This document shows positions 21,736 to 27,486 of a DNA stretch of 64,000 nt, in pieces; the stretch's first letter is position 1, and each line of letters starts with the position of its first letter. This stretch comes from an uncultured Lachnospiraceae bacterium (GTDB lineage Bacteria > Bacillota > Clostridia > Lachnospirales > Lachnospiraceae), in contig CANQSB010000010.1 of the NCBI GenBank assembly GCA_947626435.1, positions 1-64,000 on the forward strand, in the 5' to 3' direction. A program made the position numbers and the translations under genes. The notes beneath the pieces were generated by a model that made no database searches, was not told where the DNA came from, and saw nothing but the letters and a program-made list of their open reading frames with translations.

Positions 21736-22257
21736 TTATACGATTTTTATCTGGCACATTTTCATTGCTTCGAGCGCATTCCTGTGGCTTTCGGGCGTCA
21801 CTCCCGCGCAGCAGCTTTCAATTACGGACACCTCTGTTTCGGGGAGATACGCCTTTATCAAAAGCGCGTTGGAAATGACACATATGTCAGTGCAAAGTCC
21901 TATGAGCGTGACCCTTTCGATGTCGCCGCCGCGTTTCAAATATTCTGCAAGCTCCACCGAGCCGAAAGTCGGCTTGTCAAAAATCTTTATGCTGCTGTCA
22001 GCATCTATTATCGCCGCAAGCTTTTTGTCTATCTGCCAACCGTCGGTGCCCTTTATGCAGTGTGGCACGGGAAGATTTCTTCCCTCCTGAGTGTCCATAT
22101 AGTTGTCATAATGCGTATCACGCGTGAATACTATTTCTCCGTCAAAGCCTTTTACAGTCCGCGCTACATTGTCAACTATCGCCTCTGCCTCTTTAGTGCC
22201 GAGCGCCCCGTCAATGAAGTCCTTTTGCATGTCTACTACTACGAGTATGTTTTTCAT
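21736..22257 (-). CDS. Isochorismatase-family hydrolase, nicotinamidase-like
   Basis: The 173-aa cysteine hydrolase has the full catalytic triad of the family: D9 (VVVDMQKDF), K95 (FDKPTFGS) and C126 (LCTDICVISNALL). Metal-ligand residues of nicotinamidases are visible in TRDTHYDNY (D47, H49, D51 region) and VPHCIKG (H66). This favours a nicotinamidase, which would convert nicotinamide to nicotinate for NAD salvage, over an isochorismatase. It is monocistronic with a good promoter. Confidence 0.82.
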   Translation of the reverse strand: MKNILVVVDMQKDFIDGALGTKEAEAIVDNVARTVKGFDGEIVFTRDTHYDNYMDTQEGRNLPVPHCIKGTDGWQIDKKLAAIIDADSSIKIFDKPTFGSVELAEYLKRGGDIERVTLIGLCTDICVISNALLIKAYLPETEVSVIESCCAGVTPESHRNALEAMKMCQIKIV

Positions 22258-22358
22258 AATCTTTCCTCATTTCTGCACTGCTCCCTGCGCAAATCCATAA
22301 ACAGATTAACAGCCTGCGCTGAAAGCACATGCGCAATTATTTTGATTTATCTGAATTT

Positions 22359-22387
22359 ACTATAGCATTATGCCATATGTTTGACAA
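22359..22387 (-). promoter_or_regulatory. Sigma-A promoter of the isochorismatase-family gene
   Basis: On the minus strand TTGTCA (22387-22382), a 17-bp spacer and TATAGT (22364-22359) lie about 100 nt before the ATG. Confidence 0.65.
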
Positions 22388-22497
22388 GCTTTTGAGGTAA
22401 AATAGCGTATGACTAACCGACTTTACGCAAAAATAATGACAATAAACAGTGAAGTGTGTTAGACTAAGTATATAAACGATATTTAGGAGGTATCCGT

Positions 22498-24189
22498 ATG
22501 GCTCGGACTGTCGGAATCGGTATTCAGGATTTTGAAACGATTATCAAAGGAAATTGCTTCTATATTGATAAAACTGCATTTATAAAGGAATGGTGGGAAG
22601 GCTGCGACAGCGTCACGCTTATCACGCGTCCGAGGCGTTTTGGCAAGACGCTTACCATAAATATGCTTGAAAAATTTTTTTCCATAAAATACGCGGGACG
22701 AGGCGATTTGTTTGAAGGGCTTTCCATATGGAATGAACAGAAATACCGCGAACTGCAAGGCACTTATCCTGTCATCAGCTTGAGCTTTGCCAATGTCAAG
22801 GAGCCGAATTATGAGCGGACTCTCGAAAAAATCTGTTTGCTTTTGACTAATCTCTATTCACAGTATTATTTTCTGCGGGAAAGTGATGTCCTCAATGAAA
22901 ATGACAAAAAATTTTTTGACAAGGTTTCAATGGACATGAGCGAAGGGGTTGCTACGCTGGCGCTTTATCAGTTGTGCGATTTTCTTCATAAATATTATGG
23001 AAAAAATGTGATAATCCTGCTTGACGAGTACGATACGCCTATGCAGGAGGCATATGTCGGCGGGTTTTGGAACGAGCTTGTAGCTTTTACGAGGAGTATG
23101 TTCAACTCGACTTTTAAAACCAATCCTTGGCTTGAGCGCGGCATTATGACCGGTATTACCAGAGTCAGTAAGGAGTCTATATTTTCGGATTTGAATAATG
23201 TTGAAGTAGTAACCACTACATCCGATAAATACGCAACTGCCTTTGGCTTTACGCAGAATGAAGTCTTTGCGGCAATGGATGAATACGGAATTGATAAAAA
23301 GGAAAATGTCAAATTTTGGTATGACGGTTTTACCTTTGGGAACACGCACGATATATATAATCCTTGGTCAATAATAAATTATCTGGATACCCAAAAATTT
23401 GACACCTACTGGGCAAACACCAGCTCAAACAGCCTTGTTTCAAAGCTGATACAGAGTGCCGATACTGAAATCAAAGAAGAATTTAAGGGGTTGCTGCTAG
23501 GACAGTCCGTTGTTAGCGAAATTGATGAACAGATTGTGTATAATCAGCTTGACAGTACAAGAGACAGCATTTGGAGCTTCCTGCTTGCAAGCGGGTATCT
23601 GAAAATATTGAATGTGGAGGGCTTTGAGGAAATCGGCTTTGAGGAATGGAAGCAGCCGCGCTATGAGCTGGCGCTTACAAATTTTGAAGTGCGCTGTATG
23701 TTTGAAAACATGATTAAAAACTGGTTCGCTCCTGCGGCGTCCTCATACAGCCGTTTTATAAAGGCAATGTTTGTCGGAGACATTGAAGCCATGAATGAAT
23801 ACATGGGCAGAGTGACGCGGGCGGTGTTCAGCTTTTTTGATGTGCCGAAAAGTGATTCGCCTGAACCCGAGCGTTTTTATCATGGCTTTGTGCTTGGTCT
23901 TCTGGTGGAGTTGCGGGAAAAATATAAGGTCACATCAAACCGCGAAAGCGGCTTTGGGCGGTATGATATCATGCTTGAGCCCAAAAATCCATCTGATACC
24001 GCCGTAATCATTGAGTTTAAGACATATAATTCAAGGCGTGATGCCTCGCTTGAAGACACTGTCAGGTCGGCATTGCAGCAGATAGAGGATAAGAAATATG
24101 AGCAAACGCTCCTTGAAAGCGGCATTCCTGCTGAAAATATCCGCAAGTATGGGTTTGTGTTCAGCGGTAAGGAAGTGCTGATTGGATAA
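22498..24189 (+). CDS. AAA-ATPase-like / PD-(D/E)XK nuclease-like protein
   Basis: This 563-aa protein joins an N-terminal AAA-ATPase-like domain to a C-terminal PD-(D/E)XK domain, the architecture of PF09820 plus PF08011. Visible motifs are the P-loop RPRRFGKT near residue 42, Walker B VIILLDEYDTP near residue 175, and the nuclease core GFGRYDIML (Asp) with VIIEFKTY (E-x-K) near residue 500. Such proteins occur in many copies in gut Bacteroidetes and Clostridia and are suspected of roles in mobile-DNA or defence, without proof. GGAGG lies before the ATG. Confidence 0.85.
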   Translation: MARTVGIGIQDFETIIKGNCFYIDKTAFIKEWWEGCDSVTLITRPRRFGKTLTINMLEKFFSIKYAGRGDLFEGLSIWNEQKYRELQGTYPVISLSFANVKEPNYERTLEKICLLLTNLYSQYYFLRESDVLNENDKKFFDKVSMDMSEGVATLALYQLCDFLHKYYGKNVIILLDEYDTPMQEAYVGGFWNELVAFTRSMFNSTFKTNPWLERGIMTGITRVSKESIFSDLNNVEVVTTTSDKYATAFGFTQNEVFAAMDEYGIDKKENVKFWYDGFTFGNTHDIYNPWSIINYLDTQKFDTYWANTSSNSLVSKLIQSADTEIKEEFKGLLLGQSVVSEIDEQIVYNQLDSTRDSIWSFLLASGYLKILNVEGFEEIGFEEWKQPRYELALTNFEVRCMFENMIKNWFAPAASSYSRFIKAMFVGDIEAMNEYMGRVTRAVFSFFDVPKSDSPEPERFYHGFVLGLLVELREKYKVTSNRESGFGRYDIMLEPKNPSDTAVIIEFKTYNSRRDASLEDTVRSALQQIEDKKYEQTLLESGIPAENIRKYGFVFSGKEVLIG

Positions 24190-24235: not shown

Positions 24236-24282
24236 GTCAGTTAAGACATGCCAATATTTATTCGTATAAATCTCTTATATAT

Positions 24283-24311
24283 AAGGGGCTGCCCATTATG
24301 AACAGCCCCTT
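24283..24311 (-). terminator. Hairpin after flagellin gene
   Basis: A 9-bp perfect stem (AAGGGGCTG / CAGCCCCTT) with an 11-nt loop lies about 40 nt beyond the flagellin stop. The T-run on the minus strand is interrupted (TTATATATAA), so termination may be inefficient; stabilisation of an abundant mRNA is also likely. Confidence 0.65.
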
Positions 24312-24348
24312 TATGATTGTGCCAAACGCTATGTCAAGATATTGGTTA

Positions 24349-25854
24349 TTAGCCAAGGAGTGAGAGTACGCCCTGGTTAGACTGGTTAGCCTGTGCAAGC
24401 ATTGACTGACCTGCCTGTGAAAGGATATTGTTGTTAGAGTATTTAACCATCTCATCAGCCATATCTGTATCGCGGATTGCTGACTCTGCTGATGTCGTGT
24501 TCTCAACAATGTTATCCAGGTTGTTGATTGTATGCTCTAAGCGGTTCTGAACTGCACCGAGTGCTGAACGCTGTGTAGACACAATCTTGATTGCCTCGCT
24601 GATTACGGAGATAGCATTTGTAGCCCTGGTATCGTCATCGCCGTCAACCCTTAAACCGTTGATGCCAAGCCCCTTAGCCGTCAGCGCCTGAATGTTGATA
24701 GAAATCTTGTTGTTGTCCGTACCGTCAGCGCCTACATGGAATCTCATTGCCAATGCGCCGGTCTGATCCTTTGCAGCCTTAACCTTTGTCTGGTCAAGTG
24801 CAATCTCGTTGCCAAGAGCGTCATATACTTTCTTAGAATCAGCCCTGCCTGATGTTGAAATAGTTGCTGAAGCGCCTTGACCTACATCCATTGAAGTAAA
24901 ATAATCTTTCAAACCATTAGCCGCTATCTTGTTGCCATCCTTATCATAGAATGAAAATGCCTCAAGGCTGCTGCCTGCAGCGGTTACAGTAGTAGCTGTA
25001 ATGTTGCTGGTAAGTCCTGCCTTAATATCAGCTAACTTTACATTGATATTGCCGACAACCTTGCCATATGAGTTAATTACAGTGAATGATACTACACCGC
25101 TGGCGCTTACTGTACCGGAGCCAACTATTGAGAAGTTAGACTTTGCATCGCTGCCGTTGAACTGTACAGATGCCTTTACTACATCCTTTGTGACAGTAGT
25201 ACCAGTAGTAGTATCAATAACCTTAATGGTTGATGTCGTAATCGTAAGACCTTGGTTCTTGAGCGCTTTTGCCAAAGCATCCTGATCCGCTACTGAAGGA
25301 GATTTCGCTGTACCCATCGCAGAGAAGCTTACTGATACAGTAACACCGTTTGCGTCTGCTGTCTTTGAAAAGCTGGCTGTCGCGCTAAGGTCTGAACCCA
25401 TCTTATAAGCATAGCTGTATGTCTTCTCAACTGAATTGTCGCCCTTCAAAAGATATGTCTCATTGAACTTGGTTGTCTCTGCTACACGGTCAATTTCCTG
25501 TGAAAGCTGGTCAATCTCAGCCTGAATATATGAGCGGTCATCTTCTGAGTTCGGGCTGTTCGCTGACTGTACTGCAAGCTCATTCATTCTCTGAAGCATG
25601 TCATGAACTTCTGTTAATGCGCCTTCTGCTGTCTGTACTGCGCTGATGCCGTCCTCAGCGTTCGCAGATGCTTGTGTAAGTCCTCTGATCTGCTTTCTCA
25701 TCTTCTCAGATATAGCAAGACCTGCTGCGTTATCTGCCGCACGGTTAATCTTATAGCCTGAAGAAAGCTTCTCTGTTGACTTTGATAAAGAGCCCTGTGT
25801 AATACCGAGCATACGATTTGAGTTCATTGCCTGTAAATTGTGCTGTACTACCAT
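24349..25854 (-). CDS. hag: Flagellin
   Basis: This is the major filament protein of the flagellum, exported by the flagellar type III apparatus and so lacking a signal peptide. At 501 aa it is longer than Bacillus Hag. The N-terminal D0/D1 region (1 to about 150) has LSSGYKINRAADNAAGLAIS and GISAVQTAEGALTEVHDMLQ. The C-terminal D1/D0 region (from about 395) has SAESAIRDTDMADEMVKYS and ends QSNQGVLSLLG. The middle about 245 residues are Thr/Ser/Val-rich and variable. GGAGGT precedes the ATG. A CsrA-type hairpin lies in its leader and csrA is directly upstream. No flagellar genes beyond csrA are in the window. Confidence 0.97.
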   Translation of the reverse strand: MVVQHNLQAMNSNRMLGITQGSLSKSTEKLSSGYKINRAADNAAGLAISEKMRKQIRGLTQASANAEDGISAVQTAEGALTEVHDMLQRMNELAVQSANSPNSEDDRSYIQAEIDQLSQEIDRVAETTKFNETYLLKGDNSVEKTYSYAYKMGSDLSATASFSKTADANGVTVSVSFSAMGTAKSPSVADQDALAKALKNQGLTITTSTIKVIDTTTGTTVTKDVVKASVQFNGSDAKSNFSIVGSGTVSASGVVSFTVINSYGKVVGNINVKLADIKAGLTSNITATTVTAAGSSLEAFSFYDKDGNKIAANGLKDYFTSMDVGQGASATISTSGRADSKKVYDALGNEIALDQTKVKAAKDQTGALAMRFHVGADGTDNNKISINIQALTAKGLGINGLRVDGDDDTRATNAISVISEAIKIVSTQRSALGAVQNRLEHTINNLDNIVENTTSAESAIRDTDMADEMVKYSNNNILSQAGQSMLAQANQSNQGVLSLLG

Positions 25855-25958
25855 AATCTTACCTCCTTGTTTTGCCTGCCGCGCTTATTTGTCTTTGCGT
25901 CTGTAAATTTCACTTTCGTAAATCTTACATCCACAAATCCGCGCTTTGGCTTTGCCGT

Positions 25959-25975
25959 GGAAAATTCCGTTTTCC
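25959..25975 (-). promoter_or_regulatory. Predicted CsrA-binding hairpin in the flagellin leader
   Basis: On the mRNA strand GGAAAA and TTTTCC form a 6-bp stem that presents CGGAA as the loop, so an ACGGA motif lies in a hairpin loop, the preferred CsrA target shape. A second GGA lies in the flagellin Shine-Dalgarno (AAGGAGGT, about 95 nt downstream), which would allow two-site bridging as described for Bacillus hag. Prediction from sequence only. Confidence 0.6.
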
Positions 25976-26022
25976 ATCGCTTATTTTTGTTCCTTATTCA
26001 GTTTTAATTTATAATATCCGAA

Positions 26023-26061
26023 GCTGTCCGCATATCGGCGCGCCTGCTTTTGGCGGACAGC
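26023..26061 (-). promoter_or_regulatory. Hairpin between csrA and flagellin with a sigma-28 -10-like loop
   Basis: GCTGTCCGC (26023-26031) pairs perfectly with GCGGACAGC (26053-26061). The loop holds GCCGATAT (minus strand, 26039-26032), identical to the sigma-28/sigma-D -10 consensus. No TAAA lies 15 bp upstream of it; that position reads GTCC. It may be a weak hag promoter or simply an intercistronic hairpin that separates csrA from hag mRNA. Confidence 0.45.
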
Positions 26062-26076
26062 CTCAGTTATTAACCT

Positions 26077-26298
26077 TTATATTTCCTGTGCTTCTGTCTT
26101 TTTTGCTACCGCTTCTGCTGCCTCTTTAGCTGCTCTTTTTACCGCGCGTTTTTTAATGGCTCTGCCCCTTGCGACATTTATATCCTTCGGAGCGTCTATC
26201 ATCACGCGAATCTGGTTGTTGTTACCCCCGAGAAAGGTTATCTTAATGTCATTTCCTATCATCAGATATTCTTCCTTGGGCACTGTGAGCATCAGCAT
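26077..26298 (-). CDS. csrA: Carbon storage regulator CsrA
   Basis: CsrA is a dimeric RNA-binding protein that represses translation by covering GGA-containing leaders; in Firmicutes its main target is flagellin mRNA. The 73-aa protein shows MLMLTVPKEEYLMIGNDIKI, IDAPKDINVARG and the RNA-contacting R44. Position 6 is Val where most CsrA proteins have the RNA-contacting Arg. The C-terminal 28 residues form an unusual Lys/Arg/Ala-rich tail ending AKKTEAQEI. AAGGAGG lies 8 nt before the ATG. The usual partner fliW is not next to it; a recombinase segment is. Confidence 0.93.
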   Translation of the reverse strand: MLMLTVPKEEYLMIGNDIKITFLGGNNNQIRVMIDAPKDINVARGRAIKKRAVKRAAKEAAEAVAKKTEAQEI

Positions 26299-26378
26299 AT
26301 AAAAACCTCCTTGTTTTCGTTCGCTGTCTTAATACATTTTAACTGAGGATTCATCCTCTTCTGATTATGTTCCGCACT

Positions 26379-26406
26379 ATGCAACATTTTGGATAAAATG
26401 TTGCAT
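26379..26406. repeat. Left 28-bp recombination site (IRL)
   Basis: Perfect 12-bp palindromic arms surround a 4-bp centre, GGAT on the plus strand. Viewed as 11 + 6 + 11 it has the size and layout of a tyrosine-recombinase core site (arm ATGCAACATTT, spacer TGGATA, arm AAATGTTGCAT). The copy at 27327-27354 has the same arms and the inverted spacer. It lies 80 bp upstream of csrA and 80 bp upstream of the divergent recombinase. Confidence 0.8.
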
Positions 26407-26486
26407 TTGATATTTAAAGCAAAACAAATTATTATTAATAATGAAAGGAAATCTAACGAAAGGAAACGTTTAGAGAGGATATAATT

Positions 26487-27077
26487 ATGAGTACAATGTC
26501 GCCTATCAAAGACAAAAAAGAGCTGGAAGCTATGAAAAAATATTTTTTGGGGAAAAACGAGATACGAAACTATGCGCTGCTCTGCGTAGGAATTAATACC
26601 GCTTTGCGTATCAGCGATATCTTAAAGCTGCGTTGGAAAGATGTGTATGATTTTGGCAGCCGTTCATTTAAAAAGCATTTGCAGCTAAAAGAGCAGAAAA
26701 CAAAGAAAAGGGCTGAAATACTTTTAAATAAGGGGGTAATAAACGCGTTAAAAAAGCTTCTTGCATATTTTAACAGAAATCATATAATGATAGACGAAGA
26801 CTCCTATATATTTACGGGCAGAAAAAACAGGGAAAAGCCGTTGAGCCGCTCTCAGGCGTACCGCATTATAAACGGCGCTGCCAAAGCGCTTAAAATAGCG
26901 GGAAATATCGGCTGCCACTCGCTTCGCAAAACTTTTGGCTATTTTGCGGCGCGCAGCGGCATCTCTTCCGTATTGCTTATGCATATCTACAATCATTCGT
27001 CTTTTCCGATAACAAGGCGTTATCTGGGGATAGAACAGGACGAGCGCGACGAGGTGTTTATGAAGATAGCGCTTTAG
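26487..27077 (+). CDS. Tyrosine recombinase, FimB/FimE-sized
   Basis: The 196-aa enzyme consists of a catalytic domain only, without the N-terminal SAM-like DNA-binding domain of XerC/D; FimB and FimE have the same size. The catalytic set is complete: R41 (NTALRISDIL), a lysine-rich beta-hairpin (KEQKTKKR), H144 and R147 (CHSLRKTFGY), H170 (IYNHSS) and the nucleophile Y179 (TRRYLGI). AGAGAGG precedes the ATG. It lies inside inverted 28-bp sites, which are its likely substrates. It probably catalyses site-specific inversion of the segment. Confidence 0.9.
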   Translation: MSTMSPIKDKKELEAMKKYFLGKNEIRNYALLCVGINTALRISDILKLRWKDVYDFGSRSFKKHLQLKEQKTKKRAEILLNKGVINALKKLLAYFNRNHIMIDEDSYIFTGRKNREKPLSRSQAYRIINGAAKALKIAGNIGCHSLRKTFGYFAARSGISSVLLMHIYNHSSFPITRRYLGIEQDERDEVFMKIAL

Positions 27078-27268
27078 CCGCTGCCTTATCAGTATAATCT
27101 TAAATATAATTCTATTTTGACAGTTTTTTGCAAATTAGGTTATCTGTTTTTGAAAATTTTCAACTGTCTTACGGTATAACTATGCTCTTTTTCAGTTAAT
27201 CTTTGGTTATTCATCATATCGTGTAAAGAACATTTTCCTAAAATAAAAAAATTTTTTCAAATAAAGGG

Positions 27269-27295
27269 TAAAGTATTTTAAACAATAACCGATAT
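27269..27295 (+). promoter_or_regulatory. Sigma-28 (flagellar) promoter at the right end of the invertible segment
   Basis: TAAA (27269-27272), a spacer of exactly 15 bp and ACCGATAT (27288-27295) differ from the Bacillus sigma-D consensus TAAA-N15-GCCGATAT by one base. It points right, out of the segment, and downstream there is only the tail of a convergent glucosidase gene, so in this orientation it has no evident target. After inversion it would read through the left site into csrA-hag. The rest of 27078-27326 is A/T-rich and holds no gene I can support. Confidence 0.75.
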
Positions 27296-27326
27296 ATAGG
27301 ATGTAAGAACAAAAACAGCGTTAAAA

Positions 27327-27354
27327 ATGCAACATTTTATCCAAAATGTTGCAT
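27327..27354. repeat. Right 28-bp recombination site (IRR)
   Basis: This copy is the exact inverse of the left site: same palindromic arms, centre ATCC instead of GGAT on the plus strand. It is followed by TTTTTATTATAA, so in the present orientation it also looks like an intrinsic terminator for the recombinase transcript and for the sigma-28 promoter. Between here and 27486 no further gene is seen. Confidence 0.8.
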
Positions 27355-27486
27355 TTTTATTATAAGCGTTTATTAATCAACTTATACAGATTTATTTATC
27401 ATATTCCATGACCGTACATGCCGCCTTATCTTGGCAACCGGATATCCTGCCACCAAAATACTTTTTCCAAGACACTTAAAGATACC

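What the first reader, a model, noticed from the sequence alone, without database searches (positions are those of the whole stretch)
24349..27354. Self-encoded flagellar phase switch: invertible segment with a tyrosine recombinase and an outward sigma-28 promoter beside csrA-hag
A 976-bp segment upstream of csrA-flagellin is bounded by identical 28-bp sites in inverted orientation. It encodes a FimB-sized tyrosine recombinase with all catalytic residues and carries a TAAA-N15-ACCGATAT promoter that now points away from csrA-hag. Inversion would put this flagellar promoter directly upstream of csrA-hag. The plan is that of the Salmonella Hin/fljBA switch (about 1 kb, recombinase inside, promoter at one end), but with an unrelated recombinase class. 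In the orientation given, flagellin would be OFF or low. I know of flagellar switches in Clostridioides difficile, but not of this self-contained csrA-hag arrangement.
Basis: partly seen in the sequence, partly recalled or inferred. Interest (0 to 1): 0.95.

Follow-up and report, generated by a model that had tools for sequence, protein, structure and literature searches.

The report
Self-flipping flagellin switches with private addresses
In an uncultured gut bacterium, six flagellin genes each have in front of them a DNA cassette that carries its own recombinase gene and a flagellar-type promoter facing away, and because a sister species holds one such cassette the other way round, the cassettes are predicted to flip and so likely turn single flagellins on or off, which would let a harmless gut microbe keep changing its flagellar coat.

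Summary
The window's 976-bp segment (26379-27354) has perfect 30-bp inverted ends, a tyrosine recombinase gene and a sigma-28-type promoter pointing away from csrA-hag (OFF). The same genome holds six such cassettes, each beside its own csrA-hag; a seventh csrA-hag starts at a contig end exactly where the two orientations would part. Another fliW-csrA-hag locus has a fixed promoter of the same type. In a sister genome the counterpart locus has the cassette inverted precisely between the repeats (ON), and a near-identical locus of that same genome has it OFF. In 33 complete site pairs of the genus the central 8 bp match within 33 of 33 pairs although 26 cores occur: private crossover addresses. 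On the far side each palindromic site continues into complementary flank and T-rich sequence (predicted terminator, OFF only); on the csrA side it does not. Central flagellin domains differ strongly between loci (25-71% identity). Of 34 csrA-adjacent cassettes 33 are OFF, one ON. Flipping, transcription and one-at-a-time expression are inferred. I found no description in the papers searched. Likely mechanism: autonomous multi-locus flagellin phase (antigenic) variation.

The parts
24349..25854 (-). hag: flagellin, 501 aa; the gene that would be switched
   Evidence: ORF; PF00669 E 2.3e-44 and PF00700 E 1.6e-26
25855..26076 (-). csrA-hag intergenic leader with conserved hairpins (AGCAGGCGCGCC); function unknown
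   Evidence: alignment of 17 chosen leaders; 15 predicted pairs, 6 with changes on both sides; no believable Rfam match
26077..26298 (-). csrA paralogue, 73 aa, between the switch and hag
   Evidence: PF02599 E 1.1e-17; one of 8 csrA in the genome
26379..26406 (.). csrA-side recombination site; core 26390-26397 (TGGATAAA)
26407..26435 (+). predicted sigma-A-type promoter of the recombinase, TTGATA-17-TATTAT, just inside the cassette
   Evidence: best consensus match of the region, 10 of 12; 7 matches found against 5.4 expected, so weak on its own
26487..27077 (+). tyrosine recombinase, 196 aa, predicted invertase of this cassette
   Evidence: PF00589 E 3.2e-24; conserved catalytic positions; model pLDDT 90.2, best PDB matches Cre and XerA; dN/dS 0.05-0.11 in 7 pairs of relatives, 3 of them with this gene
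27269..27295 (+). sigma-28-type promoter TAAAGTATTTTAAACAATAACCGATAT, pointing away from csrA-hag (OFF)
   Evidence: same type as the fixed promoter before the hag at G000:C16
27327..27354 (.). far recombination site; core 27336-27343, the exact inverse of the csrA-side core
27322..27359 (+). predicted terminator formed in the OFF orientation by the far site, the A-rich cassette end and the T-rich outside flank
   Evidence: stretch 27316-27375 folds at -20 kcal/mol, z -6.6; 33-locus comparison. The consensus scan called this stem a terminator on the - strand only

Best explanation
The 976-bp segment at 26379-27354 is one of six related cassettes in this genome and is predicted to be inverted by the tyrosine recombinase it encodes, so that its sigma-28-type promoter would point either into a predicted terminator (OFF, the orientation seen here) or into csrA-hag (ON, the orientation seen at the counterpart locus of a sister species). 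Steps: (1) shown: the cassette holds recombinase gene, promoter-type sequence and matched inverted sites, and closely related loci hold it in opposite orientations. (2) inferred: the enzyme binds the shared ATGCAAC palindrome arms and exchanges strands across the 8-bp core; because the core differs between most cassettes of a genome, a cassette would recombine mainly with its own partner site although all the recombinases are relatives. (3) inferred: with the promoter facing out, transcripts end at the far site, whose hairpin is extended there by complementary flank and followed by T-rich sequence; facing in, the csrA-side flank does not complete the terminator and csrA-hag is transcribed with sigma-28. 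(4) inferred: with six or seven such loci with different central flagellin domains plus at least one fixed flagellin, the population presents a changing set of filaments. Whether only one is on per cell, and whether the co-transcribed CsrA silences other flagellin messages, is not known.
For: Six cassettes in one genome, each with two sites and a csrA-hag next to it, the other five recombinases 69-89% identical to the window's. Opposite orientations: window 22163-24182 and 24282-26408 align to L076 (G034) reversed (88%, 86%), the cassette forward (84%); L080 and L076 of the same genome G034 differ by a precise inversion. Private cores: 33 of 33 site pairs match over the 8-bp core, 26 distinct cores; shuffled partners match 1.5 on average, at most 6 in 5000 shuffles. 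Contig G000:C5 begins with AA + site + csrA-hag; in 17 of 18 complete loci of the four closest genomes the OFF and ON inner ends share exactly these two bases (four in L086), so the assembly stops at the base where the orientations part. OFF-only terminator: stem extension longer on the far side in 32 of 33, never shorter; more T in the 12 flank bases in 33 of 33 and lower folding energy in 31 of 33. Fixed hag at C16 carries the same type of promoter without a cassette. Purifying selection on the recombinase, dN/dS 0.05-0.11 in 7 of 7 pairs. Flagellin ends 77-99% identical, central parts 25-71%, among 7 intact flagellins of G000.
Against: Of 34 csrA-adjacent cassettes in the genus 33 are OFF and only 1 ON (scored by the recombinase's direction, the promoter being found in 33 of the 34). 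Of 16 in the wider family (28 loci examined) none has a detected promoter facing csrA (9 with a promoter found). So ON is rare, or some switches are locked. No reads or transcripts were available. Beyond the far repeat the window and L076 align for only about 21 bp, so their orthology rests on the hag side. The sigma-28 pattern with up to one mismatch is not enriched over its reversed control in this genome (68/59 against 63/66), so promoter identity rests on conservation and on likeness to the fixed hag promoter. Two cassettes of G000 (C22, C38) share the core AGAT; within-genome repeats of a core (2 of 53 pairs) are not significantly fewer than in shuffles. Two of 33 loci fold slightly better on the ON side. 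The simple consensus scan marks the far stem as terminator-like on the - strand, not in the + direction proposed here.
Confidence: 0.88

Rival explanations
1. The cassette is a decaying or locked insertion: once invertible, now fixed OFF, so that these csrA-hag loci are silent archives that feed the expressed flagellin by gene conversion.
For: 33 of 34 csrA-adjacent cassettes are OFF; the C20 flagellin is nearly identical to the window's over the variable part while its cassette is much less alike, which suggests gene conversion between loci, and its N-terminal frame is interrupted; L084 has lost its far site and L092 looks like a remnant.
Against: Recombinase frames open and under strong purifying selection in the 7 pairs tested; cores matched in 33 of 33 pairs; an ON locus exists beside a near-identical OFF locus in one genome; the C5 contig stops where the orientations part.
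Confidence: 0.07
2. The main switched product is CsrA, not flagellin: flipping alters the dose of an RNA-binding regulator that acts on the fixed flagellin or globally.
For: csrA is the first gene after the switch in 34 of 38 genus loci and 16 of 28 family loci; CsrA of Bacillus subtilis inhibits flagellin gene expression (passage in PMC3720852).
Against: A flagellin follows csrA on the same strand in 32 of the 34 (the other two, L087 and L095, are cut by contig ends), and its central domain varies between loci; L128 has recombinase and hag with no csrA found.
Confidence: 0.1
3. The cassette is mainly a selfish mobile element that inserts before flagellin genes and uses their promoter.
For: Relatives are numerous (2404 proteins at E <= 1e-20); 12 of 28 family loci lack a detected csrA (one of these shows the csrA start at its contig end, and one has hag alone); L069, L070 and L093, 46-48% identical, show no csrA or hag within reach.
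Against: Cassettes group by locus across genomes for C19 and C20 (tree); place and direction relative to csrA are conserved; no relative found in the viral collection (close relatives only).
Confidence: 0.05

Closest known systems
Salmonella Hin / fljBA flagellar phase switch
   Different: Tyrosine, not serine, recombinase; many autonomous copies per genome, not one; csrA precedes the flagellin; an OFF-only terminator appears to be built from the recombination site.
Clostridioides difficile flagellar switch (RecV) and cwpV switch
   Same: Inversions in Clostridia that control flagella or a surface protein; a terminator formed only in the OFF orientation is proposed for cwpV (passages, PMC2784873); termination acts on flg OFF transcripts through Rho (passages, PMC7446863).
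   Different: There the 154- and 195-bp segments are too short to encode a recombinase, RecV acts on several switches, the cwpV promoter lies outside the segment, and the flagellar switch controls the flgB operon, not one flagellin of several.
Bacteroides fragilis capsule loci with invertible promoters (Mpi)
   Same: Seven of eight surface-polysaccharide loci have invertible promoter regions; UpxY/UpxZ add cross-locus repression (passages, PMC12632263).
   Different: One global invertase serves them; here each cassette encodes its own and most have their own core.
FimB/FimE fimbrial switch of Escherichia coli
   Same: Short tyrosine invertases (NCBIfam profiles of 200 and 198 positions) and an invertible promoter (passage in PMC2784873).
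   Different: Fim recombinase genes lie near the switch, not within it (same passage); the window protein is far below the NCBIfam cut-offs (49.1 of 221 and 39.5 of 222 bits; that these two profiles are the Fim invertases is recalled).

Membership tests
Tyrosine recombinases (Phage_integrase, PF00589) | Match to the Pfam model above its cut-off | tested here: met
   86.1 bits against 27.1
Tyrosine recombinases (Phage_integrase, PF00589) | Catalytic Arg, Lys, His-x-x-Arg, His/Trp, Tyr (recalled list) | tested here: met
   R41, K71/K74, H144, R147, H170, Y179 invariant in 25 aligned sequences, aligned to XerA
Tyrosine recombinases (Phage_integrase, PF00589) | Fold like Cre/Xer catalytic domain | tested here: met
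   model pLDDT 90.2; best Foldseek matches Cre and XerA, E about 1e-6, TM-score by query 0.62-0.68 in the top five
FimB/FimE subfamily (NCBIfam PRK09870/PRK09871) | NCBIfam subfamily score cut-off | tested here: not met
   49.1 of 221 and 39.5 of 222 bits
Salmonella Hin-type flagellar switch | Serine recombinase | tested here: not met
   only tyrosine-recombinase families matched
Salmonella Hin-type flagellar switch | Recombinase gene inside the invertible segment, promoter at its end, flagellin outside | tested here: met
Salmonella Hin-type flagellar switch | Co-transcribed product silences the other flagellin | not testable with these tools
   csrA sits beside the flagellin; no expression data
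Invertible promoter (phase-variation inverton) | Both orientations exist | tested here: met
   OFF in the window and in L080, ON in L076; for one and the same locus within one strain only indirect (C5 contig end)
Invertible promoter (phase-variation inverton) | Inversion by the named recombinase | not testable with these tools
   no experiment
CsrA | Pfam CsrA above cut-off; NCBIfam equivalog cut-off | tested here: inconclusive
   Pfam 64.1 against 27, met; NCBIfam 49.3 of 73 and 37.9 of 70.1, not met

The most novel reading that the evidence does not exclude
A commensal's flagellar antigenic-variation machine: up to seven independent, self-encoded switches, each with its own crossover code and its own OFF terminator, choose among flagellins with different surfaces, while the CsrA made with the chosen flagellin silences the messages of the others and of the fixed flagellin, so that one filament type prevails per cell.
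Probability: 0.3. Interest if true: 0.93.

Novelty: new variant of a known kind. Interest (0 to 1): 0.84.

Why it matters
Flagellins of Lachnospiraceae are major gut antigens (recalled). A genome with six or seven separately switched flagellins would mean that motile commensals vary their flagellar surface much as Bacteroides vary capsules, but with a different logic: a recombinase gene in every cassette, and in most a private crossover code, instead of one master invertase. The related cassettes are natural material for testing how a tyrosine recombinase keeps closely related switches from crossing, and the csrA copy at each locus makes cross-silencing between flagellins directly testable.

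Tried and rejected
Rejected: chance repeat (12 places for the site pattern, 0 for the reversed control). Phage origin: no relative found in the viral collection (close relatives only; the phage and plasmid record collections were not searched). Known structured RNA: no believable Rfam match (the two listed are far below their gathering scores). Little gained: the genome-wide sigma-28 pattern is too loose to prove promoters; avoidance of shared cores within genomes is not significant (2 of 53 pairs, shuffles average 3.0; for the four closest genomes 2 of 51 against 3.9).

Left out of the counts: weaker genus relatives (30-42% identity by tblastn: L048-L053, L088, L107, L108), in which or 25 found no csrA or hag; three further matches of that strength (one in G020, two in G001) were not fetched. 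Of the four stronger genus loci without csrA in place, L079 is cut by a contig end, L092 has one site and a flagellin C-terminal piece, and L091 and L093 show no csrA or hag by tblastn. Named loci L068 (54%, contig end near the recombinase) and L069, L070 (46%, no csrA or hag found) were looked at and are not counted. In the family search 28 matches received loci and only those were examined; eight further matches outside the genus were not.

Checked at the end: whether L076 is the full counterpart of the window; only the hag side supports it, but L080 against L076 shows the inversion with both flanks.
Full report
What is in the window. At 26379-27354 lies a 976-bp segment with perfect inverted ends (30 nt). 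Each end is itself a palindrome, ATGCAACATTTT-GGAT-AAAATGTTGCAT. Inside are a 196-aa tyrosine recombinase gene (26487-27077), a weak sigma-A-type promoter match before it (TTGATA-17-TATTAT at 26407-26435) and a sigma-28-type promoter at 27269-27295 that points to the right. To the left, reading leftwards, are csrA (26077-26298) and flagellin (24349-25854).

It is one of several. The site pattern with up to 3 mismatches is found at 12 places in the 3.7-Mb genome and never for the reversed control; one further site with 4 mismatches was found in a fetched stretch. The recombinase has five close relatives (69-89% identity) and one distant protein (25%). Six complete cassettes stand beside six csrA-hag pairs: contigs C10 (the window), C19 (two), C20, C22 and C38. 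A seventh csrA-hag begins at the end of contig C5 with the site alone. The genome has 8 csrA genes: these seven and one next to fliW on C16. The flagellin of that C16 locus has no cassette; its promoter, TAAAGTATT...GCCGATATATA, lies fixed before the gene and resembles the cassette promoters, including the A/T-rich stretch before it. Four more stretches with a flagellin N-terminal match (C6, C8, C9 and C16:41232) were not compared; in the stretches taken around those on C6, C8 and C9 no site or csrA was found.

Both orientations exist. In all six G000 cassettes the promoter points away from csrA. In sister genome G034 the locus L076 has the window's hag-side neighbourhood (the AAA-ATPase/PDDEXK region, hag, csrA; 86-88% identity, reversed in the alignment), while the cassette aligns in the forward sense (84%); the promoter faces csrA. 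Beyond the far repeat the two align for only about 21 bp. Within G034 itself, L080 (OFF) and L076 (ON) differ by exactly this inversion: hag side 89% reversed, cassette 94% forward, far site plus 32 bp of flank reversed again. G034 has seven cassettes: one ON, five OFF, one cut by a contig end. In G000 the C5 contig starts with AA followed by the site. In 17 of 18 complete loci of the four closest genomes the OFF and ON inner ends share exactly two bases next to the site, AA, and then differ (four bases in L086), so the assembly stopped where the two orientations part. This fits a mixed population; it is indirect, and the C5 cassette itself is not in the assembly.

Private cores. In the genus search 37 of 38 genomes had some match at E <= 1e-3, most of the matches being distant recombinases. 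All 38 matches with E <= 2e-43 (at least 44% identity) are in the stretches that were fetched (and the window). Of these, 34 have csrA beside them, in 17 genomes, and 33 of the 34 have both sites (L084 lacks the far site). Positions 12-19 of the 28-bp site are identical within 33 of 33 pairs, although positions 13-16 vary so much between loci that random pairs would agree in 0.36, 0.29, 0.33 and 0.50 of cases; 26 different 8-bp cores occur, and shuffled partners match 1.5 times on average and never more than 6 times in 5000 shuffles. Outside the core the outer arms tolerate differences (position 9: 19 of 33 alike). This is what strand exchange that requires core identity would leave (inference). 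Two loci of G034 (C8 and C14) whose recombinases differ at 22 of 588 bases have different cores, GGGT and GGAT. Against: C22 and C38 of G000 share AGAT, two loci of G034 share AAAT, and within-genome repeats of a core are not significantly rarer than in shuffles.

A terminator that exists only in OFF. The far site is followed by bases complementary to the cassette end before it, then by T-rich sequence. The window's version folds at -20 kcal/mol, z -6.6. Over 33 loci the stem extension is longer on the far side than on the csrA side in 32 and never shorter. The partners change together: AAAA/TTTT, AAGGG/CCCTT, AAGAG/CTCTT, AAGGA/TCCTT. The far flank has more T in 33 of 33, and the folding energy is lower in 31 of 33 (mean -19.8 against -12.5). 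So an outward promoter would run into a terminator, and the inward promoter would not. The simple consensus scan did not call the far stem a terminator in this direction, only in the opposite one. The idea has a precedent: a terminator formed only in the OFF orientation was proposed for cwpV of Clostridioides difficile (passages read, PMC2784873).

Spread. In 397 genomes drawn from the family, 34 have a match at E <= 1e-30, the window's own and one more of its genus included. Of 28 loci examined, 16 have csrA beside the recombinase, one more shows the csrA start at its contig end (L118), and one has hag with no csrA found (L128). Two layouts occur: promoter behind the recombinase (as in the window), and promoter before it and divergent (L125, L130, L135). 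In both, every promoter found (9 of the 16) points away from csrA. OFF is therefore the usual state in assemblies whichever way the recombinase faces. In the genus the score OFF/ON (33 to 1) was taken from the recombinase's direction; a promoter match lies behind the recombinase in 33 of the 34, and a stricter two-strand scan found it in 30 of the 34, each on the recombinase's strand.

Why it would vary a surface. Among seven intact flagellins of G000 that were compared (six beside sites, one fixed), the first 150 residues are 79-97% identical and the last 95 residues 77-99%, but the central parts 25-71%. The flagellin on C20 has an interrupted N-terminal frame and is nearly identical to the window's gene over the variable part while its cassette and csrA are more diverged, which suggests gene conversion between loci as a second source of change; in a draft assembly this could also be an artefact.

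Recombinase. It has the conserved catalytic positions and the Cre/Xer catalytic fold, is far below the FimB/FimE cut-offs, and is under strong purifying selection (dN/dS 0.05-0.11 in seven pairs). The tree groups cassettes by locus across genomes for C19 and C20, which suggests that these were in place before the species parted.

What is known. The full-text searches listed between 0 and 11 papers each; none of the titles or abstract starts describes invertible csrA-flagellin switches in Lachnospiraceae. Not all listed papers were opened, and the library lacks most subscription papers and all preprints. Passages seen: PMC3720852 (flagellin promoters of Eubacterium and Roseburia; its one use of 'invert' concerns plot orientation), PMC5622956, PMC11868660 (review), PMC7446863, PMC2784873, PMC11892184 (gut inverton survey with no word beginning 'flagell' in its main text; it links an inverton group found mainly in Clostridia to a tyrosine recombinase group, which may or may not be related), PMC12632263 and PMC8306008.

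Organism. The nearest named records are uncultured Lachnospiraceae assemblies whose isolate names begin with Lapin, which suggests rabbit samples.

Verdict. Shown: the anatomy, the copies, the matched cores, the two orientations at closely related loci, the one-sided terminator signal. Inferred: that the enzyme flips its own cassette, that the promoter is used by sigma-28, that OFF means silent, and that the set works as antigenic variation. Not known: switching rates and exclusivity.

Noticed in passing
window 25855-26076: Structured leader between csrA and hag; AGCAGGCGCGCC is shared by 16 of 17 chosen leaders, the fixed flagellin's included; 6 of 15 predicted pairs have changes on both sides; no Rfam family fits.
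   Followed up: partly
L009 7267-8782 (G000:C20): Flagellin nearly identical to the window's over the variable part but beside a diverged cassette and csrA, with an interrupted N-terminal frame: likely gene conversion, or an assembly artefact.
   Followed up: partly
L084 5597-5671 (G033:C20): The far site of this cassette is replaced by an unrelated stretch that contains an inverted repeat; the switch would be locked OFF.
   Followed up: no
L092 4365-5362 (G032): Apparent remnant: recombinase, one site and only the C-terminal part of a flagellin.
   Followed up: no
L085 87-4132, L096 5840-8067, L104 163-4068: Two or three flagellin genes in tandem behind one switch.
   Followed up: no
L078 (G034:C9): Three switch-csrA-hag units in tandem, each with a different core.
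   Followed up: no
window 22498-24189; L007 804-2498; L005 2223-3923: Predicted AAA-ATPase/PDDEXK_9 gene (Pfam checked on the window copy) with similar genes next to two more flagellin loci of this genome.
   Followed up: no
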